NCBI GenBank assembly: GCA_030426945.1
Contig: JAUHXL010000016.1
Location: forward strand, 1-36,991
Source: a bacterium
Lineage (GTDB): Bacteria > Myxococcota_A > Bradymonadia > UBA7976 > UBA1532
Length of the DNA: 36,991 nucleotides
Direction: 5' to 3'
Numbering within the stretch: position 1 is the stretch's first letter; the number at the start of each line of letters is the position of its first letter. The translations under genes and the position numbers were made by a program. Positions 12,035-22,193 of the stretch are shown piece by piece. Under the pieces are notes generated by a model. That model was given only the letters and a program-made list of their open reading frames with translations. It made no database searches and was not told where the DNA came from.

Positions 12035-12112
12035 CGGCGCGCGGACGCCGCCGTCAAGCGGTTCGATCGTGCGGTGAGGATCGCGGAGGTCGGTCGGGAC
12101 GATCACGTCTCG

Positions 12113-12135
12113 CCTGCGCGGGCTGCTCCCGCAGG
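12113..12135. repeat. REP-like bulged hairpin upstream of the RAYT gene
   Basis: CCTGC-(GC)-GGG, loop CTGCT, then CCC-GCAGG: an 8-bp stem with a 2-base bulge, about 85 bp before the transposase ATG. RAYT-family transposases recognise short bulged hairpins of this kind (REP sequences). Only this copy was noticed in the window, so the assignment is tentative. Confidence 0.3.
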
Positions 12136-12220
12136 CCGCGGGCCAGAAAACGACCGCCGCCGCGCAACAACGGCCGCCGCTGTCCGATGGATCTCCCCCG
12201 CTTCACCCCGGAGGAGACCC

Positions 12221-13315
12221 ATGCCCGCGCCCGACACCACCCCCGCGCGGCCCCACCGCGCCCGCAAGCGCAGCCCGCGCCACCGCTGCATGCTGCCCGG
12301 CCACTGGATCCACGTCAGCAGCCGAACGGTCCACGGCCGCTACGCGTTCGTGCCGCCCCAGGACGAGGGCGAGCTGCGGCGCCTGATGTGGGGCGTCGTC
12401 GGCCGCGCACAGACGCGCTATCAGGTCGACATCGCGTACGGCGTCGTCACGAGCAACCATTTCCACTTCATCCTGCGCGCCGAGCGCCCCGGCGCGATCA
12501 GCACGTTCATGCAGTACGTGAAGGCCGGCTTCGCGCGGCTGACCCACAAGACCTACGAGACGTCGGGCCCGGTCTGGGACGGCCGCTTCCGGTCGAGCAC
12601 GATCCTCGACGCGGAGGCCGAGGTCTGGTGGCTGCGCTACTGCATGGCTCACATGACGAAAGAGGCGATCGTTCCCCGCCCGAACATGTGGCCCGGCTTG
12701 CAGTGCGTCGACCACCTGCTCGAGGGCACCCAGCCCGAGGGCCTCTGCTTCGACGCCGTCGCTTGGATGATGGCGAAGTGCCCGAAGGACAAGCGCCCCT
12801 TCTTCCGCAAGGTGAAGGTGCGCATCCACCGCCTGACCGGCTGGGAGCAGGAGCCGCTGCACGCCTACCAGGCATTCTGCCGGCAGATGTTCGACGACAT
12901 CGTCGCCGAGCACGCCGAGCGCCAGTTCTTCGGCCTCGACGCGGCGCTCGCCCTCCCACACTTCTTCGTGCCGAGCGAGGTGAAGCACAGCCCGTGCGCG
13001 GCGTTCTCGGCGATGGGCCCCCAGTCGAAGGAGCTGCTGAAGGCCGCCTACGAGGCCCGCGGCGAGGGCATCGCCGCCGTGCTCGAGGCCGTCCGCACCG
13101 TCGCGAAGGACGGCCACACCGCCGCCGCCAAAGCGGCAGAGTGCGACCCCGAGTGCCCCTGGCGGCTGCTCCCCGAGGGCTTCGACTGGCCCCCGCTGAT
13201 CAACGACGCCCTCGACGATCCGCCCATCGTCGGCCCCTTCCTGCCCCCCGACGCCGAGCTGCCGTTCTGGCCAAAGAGCTGGGGCCCACCACCCCGCGTC
13301 ATCGGCGACGGATAG
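12221..13315 (+). CDS. Y1 (HUH) transposase of the REP-associated / RAYT type
   Basis: 364 residues from ATG 12221, preceded by GGAGGAGACCC. The N-terminal half is a Y1_Tnp (IS200/RAYT) single-strand DNA nuclease: the start strand PGHWIHVSSRTVHGRYAF, the HUH metal site H80-F-H82 in TSNHFHFILRAE, the family motif GPVWDGRFRSS, and the candidate nucleophile Tyr140 in WLRYCMAHM (the position of the RYIxLNPVRA block). The roughly 200-residue C-terminal extension has no similarity I recognise. The gene is single, without an accessory TnpB or flanking inverted repeats, as expected of domesticated RAYT genes. It borders a patch of lower GC. Confidence 0.85.
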   Translation: MPAPDTTPARPHRARKRSPRHRCMLPGHWIHVSSRTVHGRYAFVPPQDEGELRRLMWGVVGRAQTRYQVDIAYGVVTSNHFHFILRAERPGAISTFMQYVKAGFARLTHKTYETSGPVWDGRFRSSTILDAEAEVWWLRYCMAHMTKEAIVPRPNMWPGLQCVDHLLEGTQPEGLCFDAVAWMMAKCPKDKRPFFRKVKVRIHRLTGWEQEPLHAYQAFCRQMFDDIVAEHAERQFFGLDAALALPHFFVPSEVKHSPCAAFSAMGPQSKELLKAAYEARGEGIAAVLEAVRTVAKDGHTAAAKAAECDPECPWRLLPEGFDWPPLINDALDDPPIVGPFLPPDAELPFWPKSWGPPPRVIGDG

Positions 13316-13533
13316 TCCAGCCGCCGCCCTCCCGAACCCGCCATTCACCCGCGCGCCCCGCGGCGCCAGCGCCGAGGTGCGCGCGAAGTCCTGCGCCGAA
13401 GCCGCCCGCCGCCCGGATCAACGTCTCGAACCGCGCCCAACGGGCCGATCACGGGCGGTTCGGCCCCGGCTCAGCCCCCCGCCACGAGCGCCCCACCACC
13501 GCTCCGCCAGAATCCGCAGCAATTCCAAAGGCC

Positions 13534-14004
13534 TCAGAGTCGGTATGCGCCGGAGAGTCCACAACTAGCCCCATCATCCAAGGCAGCTCGTGCGTCATCC
13601 CTCACCACGCCGCGTGCACAGGCTTGGTCGGCGGCGCAGTCGCCGCGGTAGCCCGACACAAGTTCCGCAGCGGAGCCGAAATGTAGCTCGCCGCCGCAAT
13701 CCGCCACAACACCACAGACATCCGCTCCGGCGGTGTAGCTCCACGGCTCAGGACCTACTTCGGAGTAGTCAACGATCACAGCATATCGAAACGGTAGCGG
13801 CGCAACGCCACCGTCGTCTGTCAGCCCGCCGTCGGGGCATCCGCAGCTGCCATCCTCGATGCACTCCCGCCCCTCCTCTTGAGTACATGCGACGATTGCA
13901 GCACACCAAGCGGCCAAGAGAAGCTGACGCAGTGGTTTCCGATGGCGCCCAAGACGCCTGCAACGGCCTATCCCGCGCCCCGCCTTGGAAATTCCTATCG
14001 CCAT
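13534..14004 (-). CDS. Small lipoprotein, possibly truncated at its C-terminus
   Basis: 156 residues from ATG 14004 (AGGG about six bases upstream). The N-terminus is long and basic, followed by a hydrophobic core and lipobox (AAIVACTQ). An acidic, Cys-rich linker (CIEDGSCGCPDGG) precedes a beta-rich segment RYAVIVDYSEV, then GADVCGVVADCGGELHFGSAAELV. That pattern resembles repeat-bearing surface lipoproteins of Myxococcota, in which the domain continues further than here. The frame ends abruptly at GLSGAYRL, 218 bp beyond the transposase gene, so the 3' end may have been lost. Codon use and GC are visibly lower than in most of the window. It overlaps the preceding ORF by ten bases. Confidence 0.6.
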   Translation of the reverse strand: MAIGISKAGRGIGRCRRLGRHRKPLRQLLLAAWCAAIVACTQEEGRECIEDGSCGCPDGGLTDDGGVAPLPFRYAVIVDYSEVGPEPWSYTAGADVCGVVADCGGELHFGSAAELVSGYRGDCAADQACARGVVRDDARAALDDGASCGLSGAYRL

Positions 14005-14303
14005 GTGGGCCCTGCCGTTGGGTGATAGGTGCCGCCCTCGGGAATACCCAACAGCCCAGCCAAGTGGAAGAACCAATCCTTCTTCATCACATCCGCCAGC
14101 ACCGCTGCCCCGTCCTCCAGACACACCTGAAGGATGGAGCCTCCGTGTGCACTTCGCCCTACTCCCCTGATCGGCGACCTCAAGATGTTCAACGACAGCA
14201 ATTCGTGCGCCTCCCAGTCGCTGGAGAACTGCGCCGTCCACAGAGAGGGGGCCCTTGTAGAAAAGGTATGGGGTCGGGCGAGACTACAGGGCATCGATGG
14301 CAT
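13995..14303 (-). CDS. Hypothetical 102-residue protein
   Basis: A minus-strand ORF whose stop overlaps the lipoprotein start and whose own start overlaps the end of the nuclease-like gene by 20 bases, giving three genes head to tail. The latter two thirds look protein-like: FSSDWEAHELLSLNIL, GGSILQVCLEDGAAVL, DVMKKDWFFHLAGLLG. I recognise no family. The first 25 residues are less convincing, so the true start may be later. The position, between a nuclease-like protein and a lipoprotein in the low-GC patch, would fit a small accessory or immunity-type protein, but nothing in the sequence proves this. Confidence 0.4.
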   Translation of the reverse strand: MPSMPCSLARPHTFSTRAPSLWTAQFSSDWEAHELLSLNILRSPIRGVGRSAHGGSILQVCLEDGAAVLADVMKKDWFFHLAGLLGIPEGGTYHPTAGPTWR

Positions 14304-15486
14304 CTGCTGCCGTGATGATTCGCTGTACCGTCAGGCGAAGGGTCGACAGGAACTCGTCGACCCGTTCTTCGAGCTCGCTCAGAAAGACGTCCCGCGACAG
14401 CGAACTCCCATCGCCCCCCTTCGGCTGCACTCCAGGAAAGAGACTCGCGACACTATCCACCCACTCGACCGCGATAGACGGGCTGATTCCGATGGACCTG
14501 AGCTGACCTGGCAGCCAACCGGTGTACAAGTCGCCGGACTTCGTGAAGCCAAAGAGTGTCAGCTTCTGCTTGCTGCCACGAGGATCACGCAGCTTGACGG
14601 AGAGGCTACTCGACCCCAATTCGACAAATGCCCCAAGTTCCCGACTCGCCTCGAGAATTTTCTGCACCGTCTCCCTTGCTGACGGCTTGAGGTGTTCAGT
14701 AAGAAACGCCTGCTCAGAGGGTGGGCGTGCGCGGCTCTGACTTTCGGAGTCGGGGGAGGGGAGTTCAACCCTCACATTGGCCTCTCCCGAAGTCTCGACG
14801 TGCACGACCGCTCTGGTGATCTCGACCGAGTTCGCGACGACACTGGGGACAACGATCGTGCTGCCGGGCTCTTGAGTGTCCCTGAAGATCTGAAGCTCGA
14901 CCAAGCCAAACGTGAACTGCAGGCGAGGATGGGCGTGTAGCGCACCAAGGAGGTGCTCCAGGCCGCGACGAATTCCATCGCCGACGACCAAGAGGAGGAA
15001 CCGCCCGTGCCGAAGGGATGTAGCGACGCTGTCGATGAAGTCGGCTTCCACCCAACCCTGGTCTGGGTGCGTCGCTGAAACGTAGTCGAAGAGTGACCCA
15101 CCGCCGATGGGAGCGGGCGCGAGAGCGCTTCGACACTTCGCTTCCAACTGCTCATACGACCAAGAGGAAGCATTCACGGCGTACTGGAGAATCTGGGCGA
15201 CGACTTCACGGGTGGCCTGCGGATTCCTCCACAGCTTCGTCTCAACAATCGTCAGGTAGCCAGACGGCGAGATGAAGAGATTGTCGATACAGTCGATCTC
15301 GCGCCCGAGGTTGATGAGCGGTCCGAACTGCTCGCCGAATTCCTTTACCGGGAGGATGTCTGGACAGTTGCTGATGAGTCGTTGAAGCGAGTCTTCAGCG
15401 TACTCGCGACTCTGTCGAGACGCGGGTTGAAGGCGCAAGTACTCACCGGAACTCGTGATCCGACAGGGAGTGGCTCGGCGTCTCAT
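14284..15486 (-). CDS. PD-(D/E)XK nuclease-like protein
   Basis: 400 residues from ATG 15486, preceded by GGAGTGAGAG. Residues about 28-105 form a restriction-endonuclease-like core: Glu31 (YAEDSLQ), Asp68 after IDCIDNLFI, the E82-T-K84 pair in LTIVETKLWRN, and Gln98 in REVVAQILQYA. This ETKLWRNPxxxxxVVxQIL arrangement is shared by uncharacterised PD-(D/E)XK proteins. The middle is beta-rich (FLLLVVGDGIRRGLEHLL). The C-terminal third is a separate domain (QKLTLFGFTKSGDLYTGWLPG), perhaps for DNA or target binding. The likely activity is DNA cleavage or binding. It sits in a lower-GC patch, divergent from a DnaB-core ATPase, a setting compatible with defence or DNA repair. Confidence 0.75.
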   Translation of the reverse strand: MRRRATPCRITSSGEYLRLQPASRQSREYAEDSLQRLISNCPDILPVKEFGEQFGPLINLGREIDCIDNLFISPSGYLTIVETKLWRNPQATREVVAQILQYAVNASSWSYEQLEAKCRSALAPAPIGGGSLFDYVSATHPDQGWVEADFIDSVATSLRHGRFLLLVVGDGIRRGLEHLLGALHAHPRLQFTFGLVELQIFRDTQEPGSTIVVPSVVANSVEITRAVVHVETSGEANVRVELPSPDSESQSRARPPSEQAFLTEHLKPSARETVQKILEASRELGAFVELGSSSLSVKLRDPRGSKQKLTLFGFTKSGDLYTGWLPGQLRSIGISPSIAVEWVDSVASLFPGVQPKGGDGSSLSRDVFLSELEERVDEFLSTLRLTVQRIITAADAIDAL

Positions 15487-15489
15487 CTC

Positions 15490-15588
15490 TCACTCCTTCA
15501 GGATGGAGCGCGCCAAGCGCTCAGCATTGGTGACGGTGCGGACCACGCTGCGAAGCGTGGAATTGTTCGACGGACCCACGACGCGCAT
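15490..15588 (-). CDS. Possible 32-residue small protein upstream of the nuclease gene
   Basis: A short frame MRVVGPSNNSTLRSVVRTVT...RSILKE ends with TGA three bases before the nuclease ATG, and the nuclease ribosome site lies inside its last codons. Almost all wobble bases are G or C and the C-terminal half would form an amphipathic helix. No clear ribosome site precedes ATG 15588, and GTG 15579 is an alternative. It may be a leader peptide, a remnant of a regulator, or chance. Confidence 0.3.
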   Translation of the reverse strand: MRVVGPSNNSTLRSVVRTVTNAERLARSILKE

Positions 15589-15939
15589 CGTACGCCGCCG
15601 ACACGCGCGGGAGAACCCCCTTTGTAGCATCGTGGCTGTAACTTGGGAGGGGACGTCGAGTGGCCACCTCGAGGATTCAGGGCGCGCACACGCCTTTCTG
15701 CTCGACGCACGGCGCTGGCGTGTCGTCGCAGGTCGCGCCTTGGCGACCGGACCGACGGGCTGGACGTCTCCGAGCCGAAGCAACTGGCGGCGTCGGCCAC
15801 CGGGGCGGTGCTGAGCCGTCGCCAGTCGCGGGCCGCGGACGGGAAAGTGTGGTCGTCCCGACATCATCACCATGCGACGAGAACTGTCGCCCAGCAGCGG
15901 CATCCTCTGCCCAGCACCGAGAGGCCCAGGACATCGCCC
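15589..15939. other. Divergent intergenic region with no supported gene
   Basis: The plus-strand frame that reads into the DnaB-core gene is open here, but its translation is Arg/Ser/His-rich and not protein-like, and the minus frames are similar. Promoters for both the nuclease operon and the ATPase gene should lie here. I could not identify a convincing -35/-10 pair. Confidence 0.5.
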
Positions 15940-16677
15940 ATGGGGTTCGACCCGATTCGCACCGGCATCGGCTGGCTCGACGACTCACCCGGCGCGCTGT
16001 CGCGCGGCGGCTTGACCCTGCTGGCGGGCCGGCCCGGTACCGGCAAGACGAGGCTGGCGCTCGATCTGGCGCTGCGGGCGAGCCGTCGCGCGCAGGTGGC
16101 TTGGTACTTCAGCATCGGCGATGGGGCTCTGCCGCTCGCCGCTCGACTTTCGGGTGGGCGCGTCGAGGTGATGGGACCGGATCGGCTGCGAAGCGCTGCC
16201 GATGGAGGCGGCGTGCTGGAGGTCTTCGGTGAAGCGGACCGTGACACCGCTTCGATCGGTGCGGAGGTCGAATCGTCTGCGCAGCACCCTGCGCTCGTCG
16301 TGGTCGACTACCTCCAGATGGTGCGCGAGCCGCCCGGTGCGTCCAGTCGAGTCGAGGCGATGGTGGCCATCGTGGCTGACCTCGCGGAACTCGCGCGACA
16401 GGCGGAACTCGCGGTGCTGCTCACAACGCAGCTCACTCGGGCACGCCGCGCGGACGCGCCGAATCTGCACCCGCTCGTCGCGCAGTTGCCGGCCGCTGAG
16501 CGCGTCGTCGCGCTCTGCGATGTCGTGTGGGCGCTCTCCGTCTCGGGCGACGACGATTTCGGAGCGCCGCGGGAGGACGCTTGGCTCCACCTCGCCCACG
16601 CGCCCGCGCTCGACGCCCCACGGAAGCACCGTTTGGGGACGGCCGCGCTGAGTGAGCCGTGGCTTCCTGATGATTGA
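15940..16677 (+). CDS. DnaB-core RecA-like ATPase lacking the helicase N-domain
   Basis: 245 residues from ATG 15940; the track's 99-residue extension is not protein-like. It is close to the C-terminal motor domain of the replicative helicase DnaB: an opening TGIGWLDDSPGALSRGGLTLLAG, Walker A GRPGTGKT (30-37), Walker B LVVVDYLQMV with Asp123, and the DnaB-style block LLTTQLTRARRADAPNLHPLV followed by AALCDVVWAL. DnaB proteins are about 450 residues and carry an N-terminal primase-binding domain; here that domain is absent. It may act as a stand-alone RecA-like ATPase, a loader, or a helicase working with a partner. It converges on the WYL gene with a five-base gap and is divergent from the nuclease-like gene. 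Confidence 0.85.
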   Translation: MGFDPIRTGIGWLDDSPGALSRGGLTLLAGRPGTGKTRLALDLALRASRRAQVAWYFSIGDGALPLAARLSGGRVEVMGPDRLRSAADGGGVLEVFGEADRDTASIGAEVESSAQHPALVVVDYLQMVREPPGASSRVEAMVAIVADLAELARQAELAVLLTTQLTRARRADAPNLHPLVAQLPAAERVVALCDVVWALSVSGDDDFGAPREDAWLHLAHAPALDAPRKHRLGTAALSEPWLPDD

Positions 16678-16682
16678 TGCCC

Positions 16683-17678
16683 TCACGAAGGTCGGTGTCG
16701 TCGCGCAACCGCCTCGGCCGTCTCGGCGACCCACGCGCGCAGCGCGGCGGGCGCCACGACCTCGAGCAGCGCGCCCTGGCTCAGCAGCCAGCCGAACAAC
16801 TCCATCGTCTCCATCACCCGAGCCTCCACCCGAACCTGACCATCGGGCTCGGTCGTCACCCGTTGACCGATGGACAGCGGCGCCTCGATCACCGCGGGTG
16901 CGATCTCCGGCGCGAGGCGCAGCACGAGATCGATCGGCGACGGATCCAGCCGATAGCCGAGGTTGCCGGCGGCGATGTGGGTGTCCAGATCGAAGTCATC
17001 GGGGCGCTCGAAACGTAGGTCGAGCAGGCGTGCGGCGGTGCACCGATGAAGGAGCAACTGCCAGGGCTCGCCGGTGTCGCGGACCACGAGGTGCTCGGCG
17101 CGTCCCCGGACCACGAGCCCGAGCGGGCAGACCGTGTGCGTGCGGGGCCGGTCGGCGTTGCGTGCCCGATAGTCCACCTCGAGCCAGCGATCTTCGAACA
17201 GGCCCCGCAGGACGACCTGGCGAACGGCTGGGTCCACGCGGGGCGCGAGTCGTGCGGGTCCGGGCGCGAGACTCCGCACCTTGTCGGACCAGGCCAGCAG
17301 CCGTGGGTCGCCTCCTCCGCGCACCACCTCGCCGGCACGCTGTACGTGGGGGGCGAGCGCCGCCTCGACGGGCGGCGGAAGGATGGGCGGCAGGCCCTCT
17401 CGTCGCATCAGCAGCGGCAGCGCGTCGCTCGGCGCGGTGCCCGAGACGCCAAACGGCTCGCTGTCGCCGCTCCATGACCAGCCGAACGATCTTCCACGCC
17501 CATCGCAGAGGAGCGGAAAGACACGTGACAGTCGGTTGAGATCGCGCTGCACCGTACGAAGGTCGATCGCGACGCCGCGTGCCGCGAGGCGGGCTTGCAG
17601 CGCCACGGTCCCGATCCGACGCGGCGCACGAGGGATGAGGGTCAGCATGGTCCAGTGACGGACGAGCGTGTCGCTCAC
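16683..17678 (-). CDS. WYL-domain transcriptional regulator (YafY-like)
   Basis: 331 residues from GTG 17678 (AAGG six bases upstream), in frame with the track's TTG at 17693. The N-terminus is a DeoR-type helix-turn-helix typical of the family: SDTLVRHWTMLTLIPRAPRRIGT, then LRTVQRDLNRLSRVFPLL. The WYL-like module follows (VDYRARNADRPRTHTVCPLGLVVR, then EPWQLLLHRCTAARLLDLRFE), with Trp-Gln-Leu in place of Trp-Tyr-Leu. A C-terminal extension domain (WCX-like) carries RVEARVMETMELFGWLL. Such proteins bind nucleic acid or nucleotide ligands and often control DNA damage or phage-defence genes. Its neighbours here are a DnaB-core ATPase and a PD-(D/E)XK protein. Confidence 0.88.
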   Translation of the reverse strand: MSDTLVRHWTMLTLIPRAPRRIGTVALQARLAARGVAIDLRTVQRDLNRLSRVFPLLCDGRGRSFGWSWSGDSEPFGVSGTAPSDALPLLMRREGLPPILPPPVEAALAPHVQRAGEVVRGGGDPRLLAWSDKVRSLAPGPARLAPRVDPAVRQVVLRGLFEDRWLEVDYRARNADRPRTHTVCPLGLVVRGRAEHLVVRDTGEPWQLLLHRCTAARLLDLRFERPDDFDLDTHIAAGNLGYRLDPSPIDLVLRLAPEIAPAVIEAPLSIGQRVTTEPDGQVRVEARVMETMELFGWLLSQGALLEVVAPAALRAWVAETAEAVARRHRPS

Positions 17679-17860
17679 CGGACGCCTTGGCAAGCCGAGC
17701 CGGTCACCGCTGTGTCGCGCGTGACCACCGACGAGGCTGCCATGCTGGGCTCAACCGGGAAGCCGTTGCCCCGAACGCTCCGTCTCGAGTCCCCGTGGCC
17801 CATCATCGGGGCCATCGGCGCAGCTCCGGTCGGCTCAGCGGGTCGGATGCCACCTCACTC

Positions 17861-20632
17861 CTACTCCACCCGCTCCACCCAAACCGGCGCCGTCCACGCC
17901 ATCACGTCCGTATCCTTCTGCCAAACCTCGAGGTAGAAAAACCACCCCCCCACCGCCGGCACGTCCAACGCCACGCCCTGCCAATCCCCCCCCGGCACCC
18001 CATCGAACGTCGCCACCGCCTCCACCGCCTTGCCCCCAACCTCCCCCCGCCACACCGTCACCACCCAATCCCCCGGCGCGTCCGGATCCACCAACCGAAA
18101 CACCCCCGTCGCCCGCGCCCCACGCACGCCGAGCCGCCCGCCCATCGGCACCCGGTCGCCGGCGTAGAACGCGATCTCCAGGTTCGGATCCTCCGTCGCG
18201 TACGCCCGCGCCTCCCGCACCGCCCCCAGCAGCGCCTCCTCCGTCAACGCCTCCGCCTGCACCGCCGTCCGCGTCGTGTGCCCGTAGCCCCAGTTCGCCC
18301 GGTGGTTGTCGTGATTCGCGGCAGGCGCGAGCCGGAAGCCGTGCAGCAGGTAGTGGTCCCAGTCGCTGTGCGTCTTCACGAAGCGCGACACCTCGCCGGT
18401 CTCGGGGTCGACCGACAGGCTCGGGTTCACCGGCGTGTGGCCGCCCAGCTCCGTCCCCCGCGCGACGGTGACCTCCATCAGGCGCGCCGTGTCGGCCGTC
18501 GCCGCGGCGACGTTGCGCAGCGTCGCGCTCACCAGCGCTTCGTCGGGCATCGCGGTGCCGGCGATCCAGTCCTCGAGCACGTCGCGCAGGGGCGCGTAGT
18601 CGTCGAGGCCGTAGTCGTTGAACTTCTTCTTCGCCTCGCTGGCCTTGGGCAGGTCACTCAGCCGCACGCCGAAGATCTGGTCCCAGCTCCCGTTCAGGAA
18701 CTCCTCGTTGTGCCGGAAGGTGCGCGGGTGGTTGAACATGACCAGGGGGCGCTCGCCCTCGGCGCGGCGGTCCTTCACGAACTCGTCGTACAGGCGGTCG
18801 AAGGCGCCGGTGTCGACCTTGGCCAGCGTGCGGGTGCCCATCACGTTGACGTGGTTGCCGGCGCTGTTGGTGCTCCACTCCATCGCCGGGATGGCGACGA
18901 AGGCGCCGTTGGCGGCCAGGGTGGCGGCTTCGGCGGCGCCGACGATCTCGGCGTAGGCGTCGGGGGTCATGTTGGCTTCGGCGTTGGGGTCGTCGGCGCC
19001 GGTGACGTGGGGGCTGAGGGCCATGAAGTCCATGCCGCTGGCTTGGGCGACGCCGAAGGCGAAGCGGGCGGCCTTGGCGGGGGTCTCGCCGACCTCGACG
19101 TGCTCGGGGTTGCCGTGGTCGTCGAGCACCTCGGGGTGGCCGTCGTCGAGGGCGCCGCCGCCGGCGTGGATGTGGGCGTGCAGGTTGCCGAAGTAGGTCT
19201 TGGTGCGGGCGGCGTCCTGCTGGGCGGCGGTGAGGCCGGCGTCGAGGCTGTCGGCGGTGAGGCTCCACTGCCACAGGCGCGCGTAGAGGTCGACGAAGGG
19301 CTCGACGGCGGCGGGATCGTCGTAGCGGACGTAGTTCTCGTAGTTGTTGAAGAACGCGCTGCCCGACCAGTTGCCCGAGCCGTTGACCAGCACGCGGTCG
19401 TCGACGATGACCAGCTTGTGGTGCATCAGCTGGTAGGCCTCGGCGTTGGTCTGCTTGTAGCGAATCTGGCCGCCGGCGGCGACGATGCGGTCGACGTAGC
19501 GGCCGCGCAGCTCGTCGCGATCCTCGGCGTTGATGACGATGCGCACCGACACGCCGCGCTCGGCGGCCTGGGCCAGGCGCTTCTGCAGTGTGTCGAACAC
19601 CAGGTGGTGCATCAGGACGTCGACGCGGGTGGTGGCCTCGGCCAGGGCGTCCTCGATGAGATCGATGGCGCCGCCGCCGGGCGTGAAGCCCACGAGGCCG
19701 TCGACCGAGCAGGCGCTGGCGTCGTCGGGGCGGTCGGCCCACATGGCCTCGAAGTGGCACGCGAAGCCGGCGCGCAGGGGGTCGGCCTTGTCGGCGTGCA
19801 CGACGACGGCGCTCTCTTCGTTGATCGAGGTGCCCGTCGACGACCAGTTGTTGCTGCCGGTGAGCAGGGTGGTGTCGTCCACCAGCAGGAACTTGGCGTG
19901 CTGCAGGCCGGCGTAGCTGCCGTTGTTCTTGCCGCGGACGAAGCGCACGGCCAGGCCGGCGTCGCGCAGGCGGCGGGCGACGCTGCCGTCGCGATCCTGG
20001 CCGCCGTCGATGGCGACGCGCACCTTCACGCCGCGGGCGTGGGCGCGCTGCAGGGCGTCTTCGATGGCCTTCACGCTGAAGGTGAACTGCGCGGCGTCGA
20101 CGGTCTCGCGCGCGCCGTCGATCAGCTCGACCACGCGGCGGGTCATCGGCGAGCGCGCCACCAGTACGGCCTTGTCGTCGGCGTCGCAGACGTCGCAGTA
20201 GGGCGCGGTGAGCACGACCTCGTAGCGCTGGGCGCCGCGGCACTGGCTGCCGGCGGCGTCGACGAGCTGGCGCAGGGCGGCGGGGCCCACCCAGGGCACG
20301 TCGTCGACGGCCTGCAGGTCGCGGAAGCGGCGATCGTCGCCGGTGCCCACCACGCCGTCGGGGCCGGCGCGGAAGGTGACCAGGTTCTGCGCGGCGCGGC
20401 TGTGGACGCCGTCGGCCCTCAGGCCCTCGGCGTCGAGGTCGAGCCGGTTGACCCGCGCCAGCACGTTGGCCTGCGTGCAGCGGTCCAGGCCCAGGCCGTC
20501 GGCCTTGCCGTCGGGGCTGAAGGGGTCGTCGGCGCCGTCCGTGGCGGGGGCGTCGTCGGCGGGGCCGTCGCAGCCGGCGGGCAGCAGGGCCAGCAGGGCG
20601 AGCAGCGAGAGCAGTCGGGTGAGTACGCGCAT
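17861..20632 (-). CDS. Exported lipoprotein fusing phospholipase D and a CehA/McbA-type PHP domain
   Basis: 923 residues from ATG 20632, beginning with a type II signal peptide (LLALLPAGCDG). Residues about 50-100 resemble a helix-hairpin-helix segment. A two-copy phospholipase D domain follows, with HKD motifs LQHAKFLLVDD (about 244) and MHHKLVIVDD (about 402), each followed by TGSNNWS or NGSGNWSG as in nuclease-type PLDs. From about 480 a second enzyme begins: YFGNLHAHIHAGGG, then FNHPRTFRHNEEFL, and NHDNHRANWGYGHTTRTAV with the terminal PHP/DUF3604-like pattern. It is compatible with a metal-dependent phosphoesterase of the CehA/McbA group. The last 120 residues are beta-rich. An extracellular nucleic acid- or lipid-degrading enzyme is likely; the substrate is not known. 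Confidence 0.85.
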   Translation of the reverse strand: MRVLTRLLSLLALLALLPAGCDGPADDAPATDGADDPFSPDGKADGLGLDRCTQANVLARVNRLDLDAEGLRADGVHSRAAQNLVTFRAGPDGVVGTGDDRRFRDLQAVDDVPWVGPAALRQLVDAAGSQCRGAQRYEVVLTAPYCDVCDADDKAVLVARSPMTRRVVELIDGARETVDAAQFTFSVKAIEDALQRAHARGVKVRVAIDGGQDRDGSVARRLRDAGLAVRFVRGKNNGSYAGLQHAKFLLVDDTTLLTGSNNWSSTGTSINEESAVVVHADKADPLRAGFACHFEAMWADRPDDASACSVDGLVGFTPGGGAIDLIEDALAEATTRVDVLMHHLVFDTLQKRLAQAAERGVSVRIVINAEDRDELRGRYVDRIVAAGGQIRYKQTNAEAYQLMHHKLVIVDDRVLVNGSGNWSGSAFFNNYENYVRYDDPAAVEPFVDLYARLWQWSLTADSLDAGLTAAQQDAARTKTYFGNLHAHIHAGGGALDDGHPEVLDDHGNPEHVEVGETPAKAARFAFGVAQASGMDFMALSPHVTGADDPNAEANMTPDAYAEIVGAAEAATLAANGAFVAIPAMEWSTNSAGNHVNVMGTRTLAKVDTGAFDRLYDEFVKDRRAEGERPLVMFNHPRTFRHNEEFLNGSWDQIFGVRLSDLPKASEAKKKFNDYGLDDYAPLRDVLEDWIAGTAMPDEALVSATLRNVAAATADTARLMEVTVARGTELGGHTPVNPSLSVDPETGEVSRFVKTHSDWDHYLLHGFRLAPAANHDNHRANWGYGHTTRTAVQAEALTEEALLGAVREARAYATEDPNLEIAFYAGDRVPMGGRLGVRGARATGVFRLVDPDAPGDWVVTVWRGEVGGKAVEAVATFDGVPGGDWQGVALDVPAVGGWFFYLEVWQKDTDVMAWTAPVWVERVE

Positions 20633-20774: not shown

Positions 20775-22193
20775 TCAGTCGCCCGTCACGTCCGCCGCCG
20801 TGAACCACAGCGCTTCGCCCGCATCGACCGCCTCGCGGATGGTCGCGTCGGCCTCGTCGCGGGCCGAGAAGAAGGCGAGGTGGATCGTGTGGGCGCCGAG
20901 CTGGGCGGCGACGCGCGTGGCGCGGGTGCGCAGGGCGGTGAGATCCTCGCGGGTGACCGCGCCCCACTTGCACTCGGCGGCCAGCAGGCGGCCTTCGGCG
21001 TCGAGGGCGACGATGTCGAGCTGGTCGTTGCCGTGGGCGTCCCACCACTCGCCCACGCGCATCGGCTGCAGGGGCAGGCGGGCGCCGCGGCGTACGAACT
21101 GGCGGCAGGTCTCTTCGAAGACGGGGCCGAGGTGCTCCGACAGCGTGGGCTGGACGATGCGCTGCCACAGCACCTCGGGGCGCTGCAGGCCGAGGCTGCC
21201 GGCGCGCAGCAGGGGGGCGACGCTGCGGTGCCAGAAGGTCACGTAGGGATCGGCGATGCGGTAGAGCGCGCGCTTCGAGCGGGCCGGGTTCTTCTCGGTG
21301 ATGGGCACGACGCGCTCGACGAGGCCCATGTCTTCGAGCCACCGCAGCGGGCGCAGCAGGGCGCCGCCGCTCTGGCCGACGCGGCGGGTGATGCCGCTCC
21401 AGGTGTGGTCGCCGGTCGCGATGGCCTCGAGGATGGAGTAGTGCACGCGCGCGTCGGTGAGGAAGGCGTCCAGCATGTGCTGGGCCTCGTCCACCAGCGG
21501 GCCGATGGGGTCGAACAGCGCGGCGGCGGCGTTCTCGGCCACCGAGCGCTGCGGATCGAGGCGGGCGAGGTGTCCGGGCAGGTTGCCGAAGGTCGCGTAG
21601 GCGATCAGGCGGTCGAGCGGGCTGTAGCCGGGCAGGAACGCGGCGGCGTCGGCGACGTCGAACGGGCCGAACAGCAGCCGCGCGGTGCGGCGGCCGTAGA
21701 GGGGCTGGTCGGCCTCCTCGAGCGCGCGCATCGCGGTGACGAACGAGCCGCTCAGGACGAGCTTGATCGGCCGGCCGACGAAGTCGTGATCCCAGTAGCG
21801 CTGGAGGATCGAGGGCAGCGCGGGCGAGGCCGCGGAGAGGTAGGGGAACTCGTCGAGAACGAGGACGAAGGGCGTGTCGCCGACGCGGCGTCCGAGGTCG
21901 TCGAGCAGCTGCTCCCAGGACGCGAAGGTGACGCCGGCGCGCAGGGCGGGATCGTCGAAGCGCTCGCCGACCAGCCGGGACAGGTGGACGAGCTGCTCGC
22001 CCTCGGTGCGGCGGGTGGCCTGGTAGTAGAGGCCGCCGGTGTGCTGGGCGAAGCGCGACAGCAGGTGGCTCTTGCCGACGCGGCGGCGGCCGAGGACGAA
22101 GACGAGGTCGGGCTGGGGGCGCTGGGCGATGCGCTCGAGGGCGCGCCACTCGGCGTGGCGGTCGAACACGTCGGGGGGCTTCGTGGACGGCAT
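20775..22193 (-). CDS. Archaeal-type AAA ATPase with DUF234 nuclease-like C-terminus
   Basis: 472 residues from ATG 22193 (CAGGGAG about seven bases upstream). The N-terminal half is a STAND/AAA-like ATPase: Walker A GRRRVGKSHLL (about 35-43), Walker B FVLVLDEFPYL (about 112) and an arginine-containing sensor block LSGSFVTAMRALEE. A winged helix follows (ILEAIATGDHTWSGITRRVGQSG, then LRWLEDMGLVERVVP). The C-terminus is a DUF234 domain with a PD-(D/E)XK-like site, DQLDIVALDAEGRLLAAECKWG (about 394-412). The family is widespread and uncharacterised, common in archaea. Roles in defence or genome maintenance have been proposed. The array of 15-bp repeats begins 48 bp upstream of its start codon. 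Confidence 0.9.
   Translation of the reverse strand: MPSTKPPDVFDRHAEWRALERIAQRPQPDLVFVLGRRRVGKSHLLSRFAQHTGGLYYQATRRTEGEQLVHLSRLVGERFDDPALRAGVTFASWEQLLDDLGRRVGDTPFVLVLDEFPYLSAASPALPSILQRYWDHDFVGRPIKLVLSGSFVTAMRALEEADQPLYGRRTARLLFGPFDVADAAAFLPGYSPLDRLIAYATFGNLPGHLARLDPQRSVAENAAAALFDPIGPLVDEAQHMLDAFLTDARVHYSILEAIATGDHTWSGITRRVGQSGGALLRPLRWLEDMGLVERVVPITEKNPARSKRALYRIADPYVTFWHRSVAPLLRAGSLGLQRPEVLWQRIVQPTLSEHLGPVFEETCRQFVRRGARLPLQPMRVGEWWDAHGNDQLDIVALDAEGRLLAAECKWGAVTREDLTALRTRATRVAAQLGAHTIHLAFFSARDEADATIREAVDAGEALWFTAADVTGD

What the first reader, a model, noticed from the sequence alone, without database searches (positions are those of the whole stretch)
13534..17678. Nuclease-like / DnaB-core ATPase / WYL cluster as a candidate defence locus
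A PD-(D/E)XK protein, a RecA-like ATPase reduced to the DnaB motor domain, and a WYL regulator stand side by side, with a small ORF and a lipoprotein attached. The nuclease side has visibly lower GC than the rest of the window and is next to an HUH transposase. WYL regulators often control phage-defence genes, and nuclease plus ATPase is a common defence design. The combination is not one I can name.
Basis: inference. Interest (0 to 1): 0.65.

Follow-up and report, generated by a model that had tools for sequence, protein, structure and literature searches.

The report
Borrowed nuclease gene beside unlinked neighbours
Three real genes sit side by side on a stretch of unusual base composition, but they do not travel together in other genomes; the one worth attention is a horizontally acquired DNA-cutting enzyme of a widespread, unstudied family that may defend bacteria against phages.

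Summary
They are not one operon: nuclease and ATPase diverge, ATPase and WYL converge. All three have a third-codon GC 5-10 s.d. below the window's other genes. In about 100 loci encoding nuclease relatives, many with truncated flanks, a DnaB-like ATPase is present in 0 and a WYL gene of the same subfamily is adjacent in 1 (Wenzhouxiangella). The ATPase has no relative closer than ordinary DnaB in 379 phylum genomes. The WYL protein's closest kin found are in its own class, away from any nuclease. The lipoprotein belongs to a native lipoprotein family and the small ORF looks spurious. The nuclease is a sporadic single-gene family spread across many bacterial phyla and weakly related to PADLOC candidate PDC-S11 and to NucS. 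The best reading is an insertion-prone spot holding independently acquired genes, one of them a plausible single-gene nuclease defence. A WYL-controlled nuclease is possible but weakly supported. The three-gene system is not supported.

The parts
14284..15486 (-). NucS-like PD-(D/E)XK nuclease, 400 aa, with a well-ordered C-terminal domain (about 255-400) of unknown kind; Shine-Dalgarno-like AAGGAG upstream of the ATG
   Evidence: Active-site residues conserved in 74 relatives; AlphaFold mean pLDDT 88.6; PDC-S11 hit 1.6e-6 over residues 29-120; NucS/EndoMS the most plausible fold match, prob 0.87 but E 0.15; ribosome-binding site read
15940..16677 (+). Stand-alone DnaB motor-domain ATPase, 245 aa; Walker A and B, QLTR motif and a C-terminal KHR kept; conserved Glu after strand 2 replaced (SIGDG for SLEMP)
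   Evidence: Pfam DnaB_C 1.8e-17; alignment with DnaB of relatives; nearest solved structures are DnaB
16683..17693 (-). HTH-WYL-WCX transcriptional regulator, DriD/PafBC-type architecture
   Evidence: Pfam WYL and WCX; nearest solved structures are DriD, e.g. 8tp8, 9pfq
13534..14004 (-). Lipoprotein of a native family (ATG at 14004; the open frame extends to 14241); a neighbour, not a component
   Evidence: Relatives in G000, G005, G006, G009; start position
12074..13315 (+). REP-type Y1 (HUH) transposase, one of a multi-copy family in this genome; a neighbour
   Evidence: Y1_Tnp 4e-6, REP_Tyr_transpos 8e-10, 11 matches in the own genome

Best explanation
The stretch 13.5-17.7 kb is an insertion-prone spot next to a REP-type transposase that has collected foreign genes one by one; it is not a three-part machine. 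Its one gene with an interpretable defence role is the nuclease, a single-gene NucS-like PD-(D/E)XK enzyme. The most likely mechanism is that it cuts invading or abnormal DNA by itself, with the N-terminal domain cleaving and the C-terminal domain recognising the substrate. Shown: the conserved active site, the predicted two-part fold, patchy distribution and placement among relatives from other phyla. Inferred: DNA as substrate, and defence as purpose. The WYL protein most likely senses single-stranded nucleic acid, as DriD does, and regulates its own or nearby genes (inferred). The ATPase is a diverged DnaB-derived gene of unknown use, possibly a leftover of mobile-element replication (inferred).
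For: Opposed orientations. No ATPase within the flanks of any of about 100 nuclease loci and an adjacent WYL gene in one. ATPase has no homologue above DnaB background in 379 phylum genomes. Nuclease matches at E<=1e-12 in 18 of 379 phylum genomes, all others far weaker than the window's own; in a quick tree it falls in a six-member clade (support 100) with Bipolaricaulota, Actinomycetota, Desulfobacteraceae, Verrucomicrobia and Wenzhouxiangella, away from nine Myxococcota homologues. All three genes foreign by GC3, the nuclease most. 53 of 54 family members match PDC-S11 models. Neighbours of relatives include type I restriction, GajB-like, PDC and DRT-type models, C5 methylase/Vsr/Z1 genes, Cas6 and other RAMP genes, but also housekeeping genes.
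Against: ATPase and WYL share a similar GC3 (0.80, 0.81) and end 5 bases apart, which could mean they arrived together. The Wenzhouxiangella relative, in the same clade, has a same-subfamily WYL gene 82 bases upstream of the nuclease on the same strand. The defence enrichment of neighbours was not tested with a proper control: near genes hit 141 PADLOC models per 124 proteins, genes over 5 kb away 71 per 102, with redundant models. Some loci have truncated flanks: 50 of 80 reach 4 kb on both sides, 74 of 80 have 1.2 kb upstream.
Confidence: 0.7

Rival explanations
1. A two-gene unit: the WYL regulator senses single-stranded DNA from phage replication or damage, as DriD does, and switches on the nuclease, with the ATPase gene inserted between them later.
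For: WYL and nuclease are on the same strand; in Wenzhouxiangella (L104) a 35%-identical WYL lies 82 bases upstream of a nuclease of the same clade. WYL proteins of this type precede nucleases or restriction genes on plasmids, e.g. AbaSI-like in Vibrio and HNH plus McrBC in Marinomonas. DriD is activated by ssDNA (PMC12340889).
Against: 1 adjacency in about 100 nuclease loci; two clade members with visible upstream sequence (L093, L096) have none. The window WYL is closer to WYL proteins of its own class (about 40%) than to the Wenzhouxiangella one (35%), so the pair was probably not inherited together. No shared inverted repeat was found in the two promoter regions.
Confidence: 0.15
2. A lineage-specific three-gene defence system: nuclease effector, DnaB-core ATPase as DNA sensor or translocase, WYL switch.
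For: Adjacency and shared foreign composition of all three; ATPase keeps Walker A and B; weak PADLOC mad8 match 4e-12, probably generic to DnaB-like cores.
Against: No recurrence anywhere; opposed transcription; ATPase has lost a conserved Glu; its single-sequence model is uninformative.
Confidence: 0.05
3. The nuclease is a DNA-repair or mismatch enzyme like NucS/EndoMS rather than a defence gene.
For: NucS_C matches in 4 of 54 relatives; NucS/EndoMS structures are the most plausible fold matches.
Against: Patchy presence (18 of 379 phylum genomes), presence on plasmids and viral contigs, different C-terminal domain, no NucS match for the window protein itself.
Confidence: 0.1

Closest known systems
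PDC-S11 (PADLOC phage-defence candidate, single gene)
   Same: PD-(D/E)XK domain; single-gene organisation; 53 of 54 family members hit its models
   Different: Only residues 29-120 match in the window protein (E 1.6e-6); the C-terminal part is not covered; PDCs are mostly unvalidated (PMC12988326)
NucS / EndoMS endonuclease
   Same: PD-(D/E)XK core and weak fold similarity
   Different: No significant sequence match of the window protein; different C-terminal domain; Foldseek E 0.15, TM below 0.35
DriD / PafBC WYL-WCX regulators
   Same: WYL and WCX domains behind an N-terminal HTH region; DriD structures the best PDB matches
   Different: Low identity over the C-terminal half only; ligand and targets unknown; not shown to respond to DNA damage
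BrxR / CapW defence WYL regulators
   Same: WYL domain; upstream of defence genes in some relatives
   Different: BrxR structures were not hit at E 0.01; BrxR family reported absent from Deltaproteobacteria (PMC9122601)
DnaB replicative helicase
   Same: Motor domain with Walker A, Walker B (DYLQ), QL-R motif, C-terminal K-x-R
   Different: No N-terminal domain or linker; conserved Glu of SLEM lost; altered motif 4

Membership tests
PD-(D/E)XK nuclease superfamily | Glu...Asp...E-x-K...Q-x3-Y active-site signature | tested here: met
   E31, D68, E82, K84, Q98, Y102 conserved in 74 family members
PDC-S11 | Full-length match to the PDC-S11 profiles | tested here: not met
   Window protein matches positions 23-108 of 358 only
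PDC-S11 | Anti-phage activity | not testable with these tools
   No experiment; no test of PDC-S11 itself was found in the papers searched
NucS/EndoMS | Significant profile or fold match to NucS | tested here: not met
   No Pfam match for the window protein; 4 of 54 relatives match NucS_C weakly; Foldseek E 0.15
DnaB helicase | N-terminal domain plus motor domain, about 450 aa | tested here: not met
   245 aa, motor only; relatives' DnaB frames are 450-540 aa
DnaB helicase | Conserved Glu after the H1a strand (SLEM) | tested here: not met
   SIGDG in the window protein, SLEMP or TLEMP in four relatives
WYL-WCX (DriD/PafBC-like) regulators | HTH, WYL and WCX domains in this order | tested here: met
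   WYL 159-220 and WCX 253-330 by Pfam; the HTH was read from the N-terminal sequence and full-length matches to annotated WYL regulators, not matched by a profile of its own
WYL-WCX (DriD/PafBC-like) regulators | Activation by ssDNA | not testable with these tools
   Needs binding assays
Three-gene nuclease/ATPase/WYL defence system | Conserved linkage of the three genes across genomes | tested here: not met
   0 of about 100 nuclease loci with ATPase, 1 with adjacent WYL

The most novel reading that the evidence does not exclude
A lineage-specific defence module in which a DriD-like WYL protein senses single-stranded DNA and a DnaB-derived ATPase without its catalytic Glu acts as a DNA-loading adaptor for a NucS-like nuclease.
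Probability: 0.04. Interest if true: 0.6.

Novelty: new member of a known kind. Interest (0 to 1): 0.22.

Why it matters
The claimed three-part system does not exist as a travelling unit, so it should not be listed as a defence system. The nuclease family has no Pfam model that matches the window protein and no solved relative by sequence, is spread across many bacterial phyla as a single gene, and has a strict active-site signature; a phage-challenge test of one member would settle whether this branch next to PDC-S11 is a real defence family.

Tried and rejected
Operon reading: rejected by orientation. ATPase as part of MADS (mad8 hit): probably a generic DnaB-like match, no other MADS genes among the neighbouring proteins scanned. 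The PLD-like gene (17861-20632) as DrmC/DISARM: below the NCBIfam cut-off (89.9 against 133 bits) and present in the same genus (65%) and family (60%). An empty site in relatives: not testable, because no relative keeps the same gene order and the sister contig ends shortly after the PLD gene. Paired repeats bounding the island: none found. Shared WYL operator between the two promoter regions: no matching inverted repeat. Phage origin: no PHROG for nuclease or WYL, no match of the nuclease in phage records, four matches in viral contigs. Single-sequence model of the ATPase failed (pLDDT 38). First genome-contig scan with the single nuclease sequence found nothing; the alignment-based scan worked. 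Rfam and promoter scans gave nothing useful.

Full report
What is there. The window is contig C715 of a 7.57-Mb, 772-contig genome bin (75.6% complete). From the tree labels and gene repertoire of its relatives it looks like Myxococcota; this assignment is inference. Between 13.5 and 17.7 kb lie a nuclease gene (14284-15486, -), a DnaB-core ATPase (15940-16677, +) and a WYL-WCX gene (16683-17693, -). The nuclease and ATPase diverge from a 453-base gap; ATPase and WYL converge with 5 bases between their ends. They cannot share one transcript. The lipoprotein belongs to a family with further members in this genome and three relatives. Other window genes are ordinary: fatty-acid desaturase, NmrA-like, leucine carboxyl methyltransferase, pseudouridine synthase, permease and so on.

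Composition. Third-codon GC is 0.936 +/- 0.023 in 20 other window genes; nuclease 0.70, ATPase 0.80, WYL 0.81. All three are therefore compositionally foreign, the nuclease most. Next to them is a REP-type Y1 transposase that has 11 matches in the genome. No repeats bracket the segment, so how it was inserted is unknown.

Linkage test. The nuclease family was collected from plasmids (5 loci read), whole genomes (80 loci from genome contigs, plus 12 read from the genome search collection) and viral contigs (4). Profiles or BLAST of the ATPase found it in none of them; the WYL profile found an immediate neighbour in one, L104 (Wenzhouxiangella), and two more WYL genes about 6 kb away. Flanks are incomplete in part of the set: 50 of 80 have at least 4 kb on both sides and 74 of 80 at least 1.2 kb upstream. 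Around the seven best WYL relatives in related genomes neither nuclease nor ATPase occurs. The ATPase has no homologue above DnaB background in 379 genomes of the phylum.

The nuclease. D68, E82, K84, Q98 and Y102 are invariant and E31 nearly so (73/74) in 74 members. The AlphaFold model from a 54-row alignment is confident (mean pLDDT 88.6), with a PD-(D/E)XK domain and a separate C-terminal domain; the low pTM (0.61) leaves their relative placement open. No solved structure matches by sequence. By fold, NucS/EndoMS is the most plausible match but not significant. 53 of 54 family members match PDC-S11 models, in the window protein over the nuclease domain only. In a quick maximum-likelihood tree the window protein lies in a six-member clade (support 100) with sequences from Bipolaricaulota, Actinomycetota, Desulfobacteraceae, Verrucomicrobia and Wenzhouxiangella, apart from nine Myxococcota homologues (the careful tree did not finish). 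At E<=1e-12 it occurs in 18 of 379 phylum genomes. This is the pattern of a mobile single gene. Neighbours of relatives include restriction, methylase, Vsr, Cas6/RAMP and other PADLOC-listed genes but also housekeeping genes, and a matched control was not done.

The ATPase. It keeps Walker A (GRPGTGKT), Walker B (VVVDYLQ), the QLTR motif and a terminal KHR, but the Glu of the DnaB SLEM motif is replaced (SIGDG) and the N-terminal domain is absent. That this Glu is the catalytic base in DnaB is from general knowledge. Reduced or absent hydrolysis is an inference. No DnaB of full length was found in this incomplete assembly; this is not interpreted.

The WYL protein. WYL plus WCX domains and best PDB matches to DriD, which binds ssDNA and then activates transcription (PMC12340889). 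Some relatives on plasmids stand before restriction or nuclease genes. In Wenzhouxiangella a WYL of this subfamily lies 82 bases upstream of a nuclease of the window's clade. The window WYL is, however, closer to WYL proteins of its own class (about 40% against 35%), so co-inheritance is not supported.

Verdict. The genes are real and foreign; the system is not. The remaining candidate is a single-gene nuclease, a new member of a known kind.

Noticed in passing
window 20775-22193 (-): ATPase_2/DUF234 protein with a D...E-x-K stretch near its C-terminus, matching PADLOC candidate PDC-S27 (3.8e-35); composition is native (GC3 0.97).
   Followed up: partly
window 17861-20632 (-): Lipoprotein fusing two PLD-type domains to a CehA/McbA-like metallohydrolase domain; 65% identical copy in the same genus and 60% in the same family.
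   Followed up: partly
window 12074-13315 (+): REP-type tyrosine transposase with a coding extension, 11 matches in this genome and up to 18 in related ones; an imperfect palindrome at 13350-13385 follows it.
   Followed up: partly
L104 5360-9224: Wenzhouxiangella stretch with two uncharacterised proteins, a WYL regulator and the nuclease in a row on one strand; a candidate operon worth its own look.
   Followed up: no
L130 and L131: Nearly identical nucleases in a Phycisphaerae bin and a bin labelled Leptolyngbya (end branches 0.04-0.05); the latter label may be a binning error.
   Followed up: no
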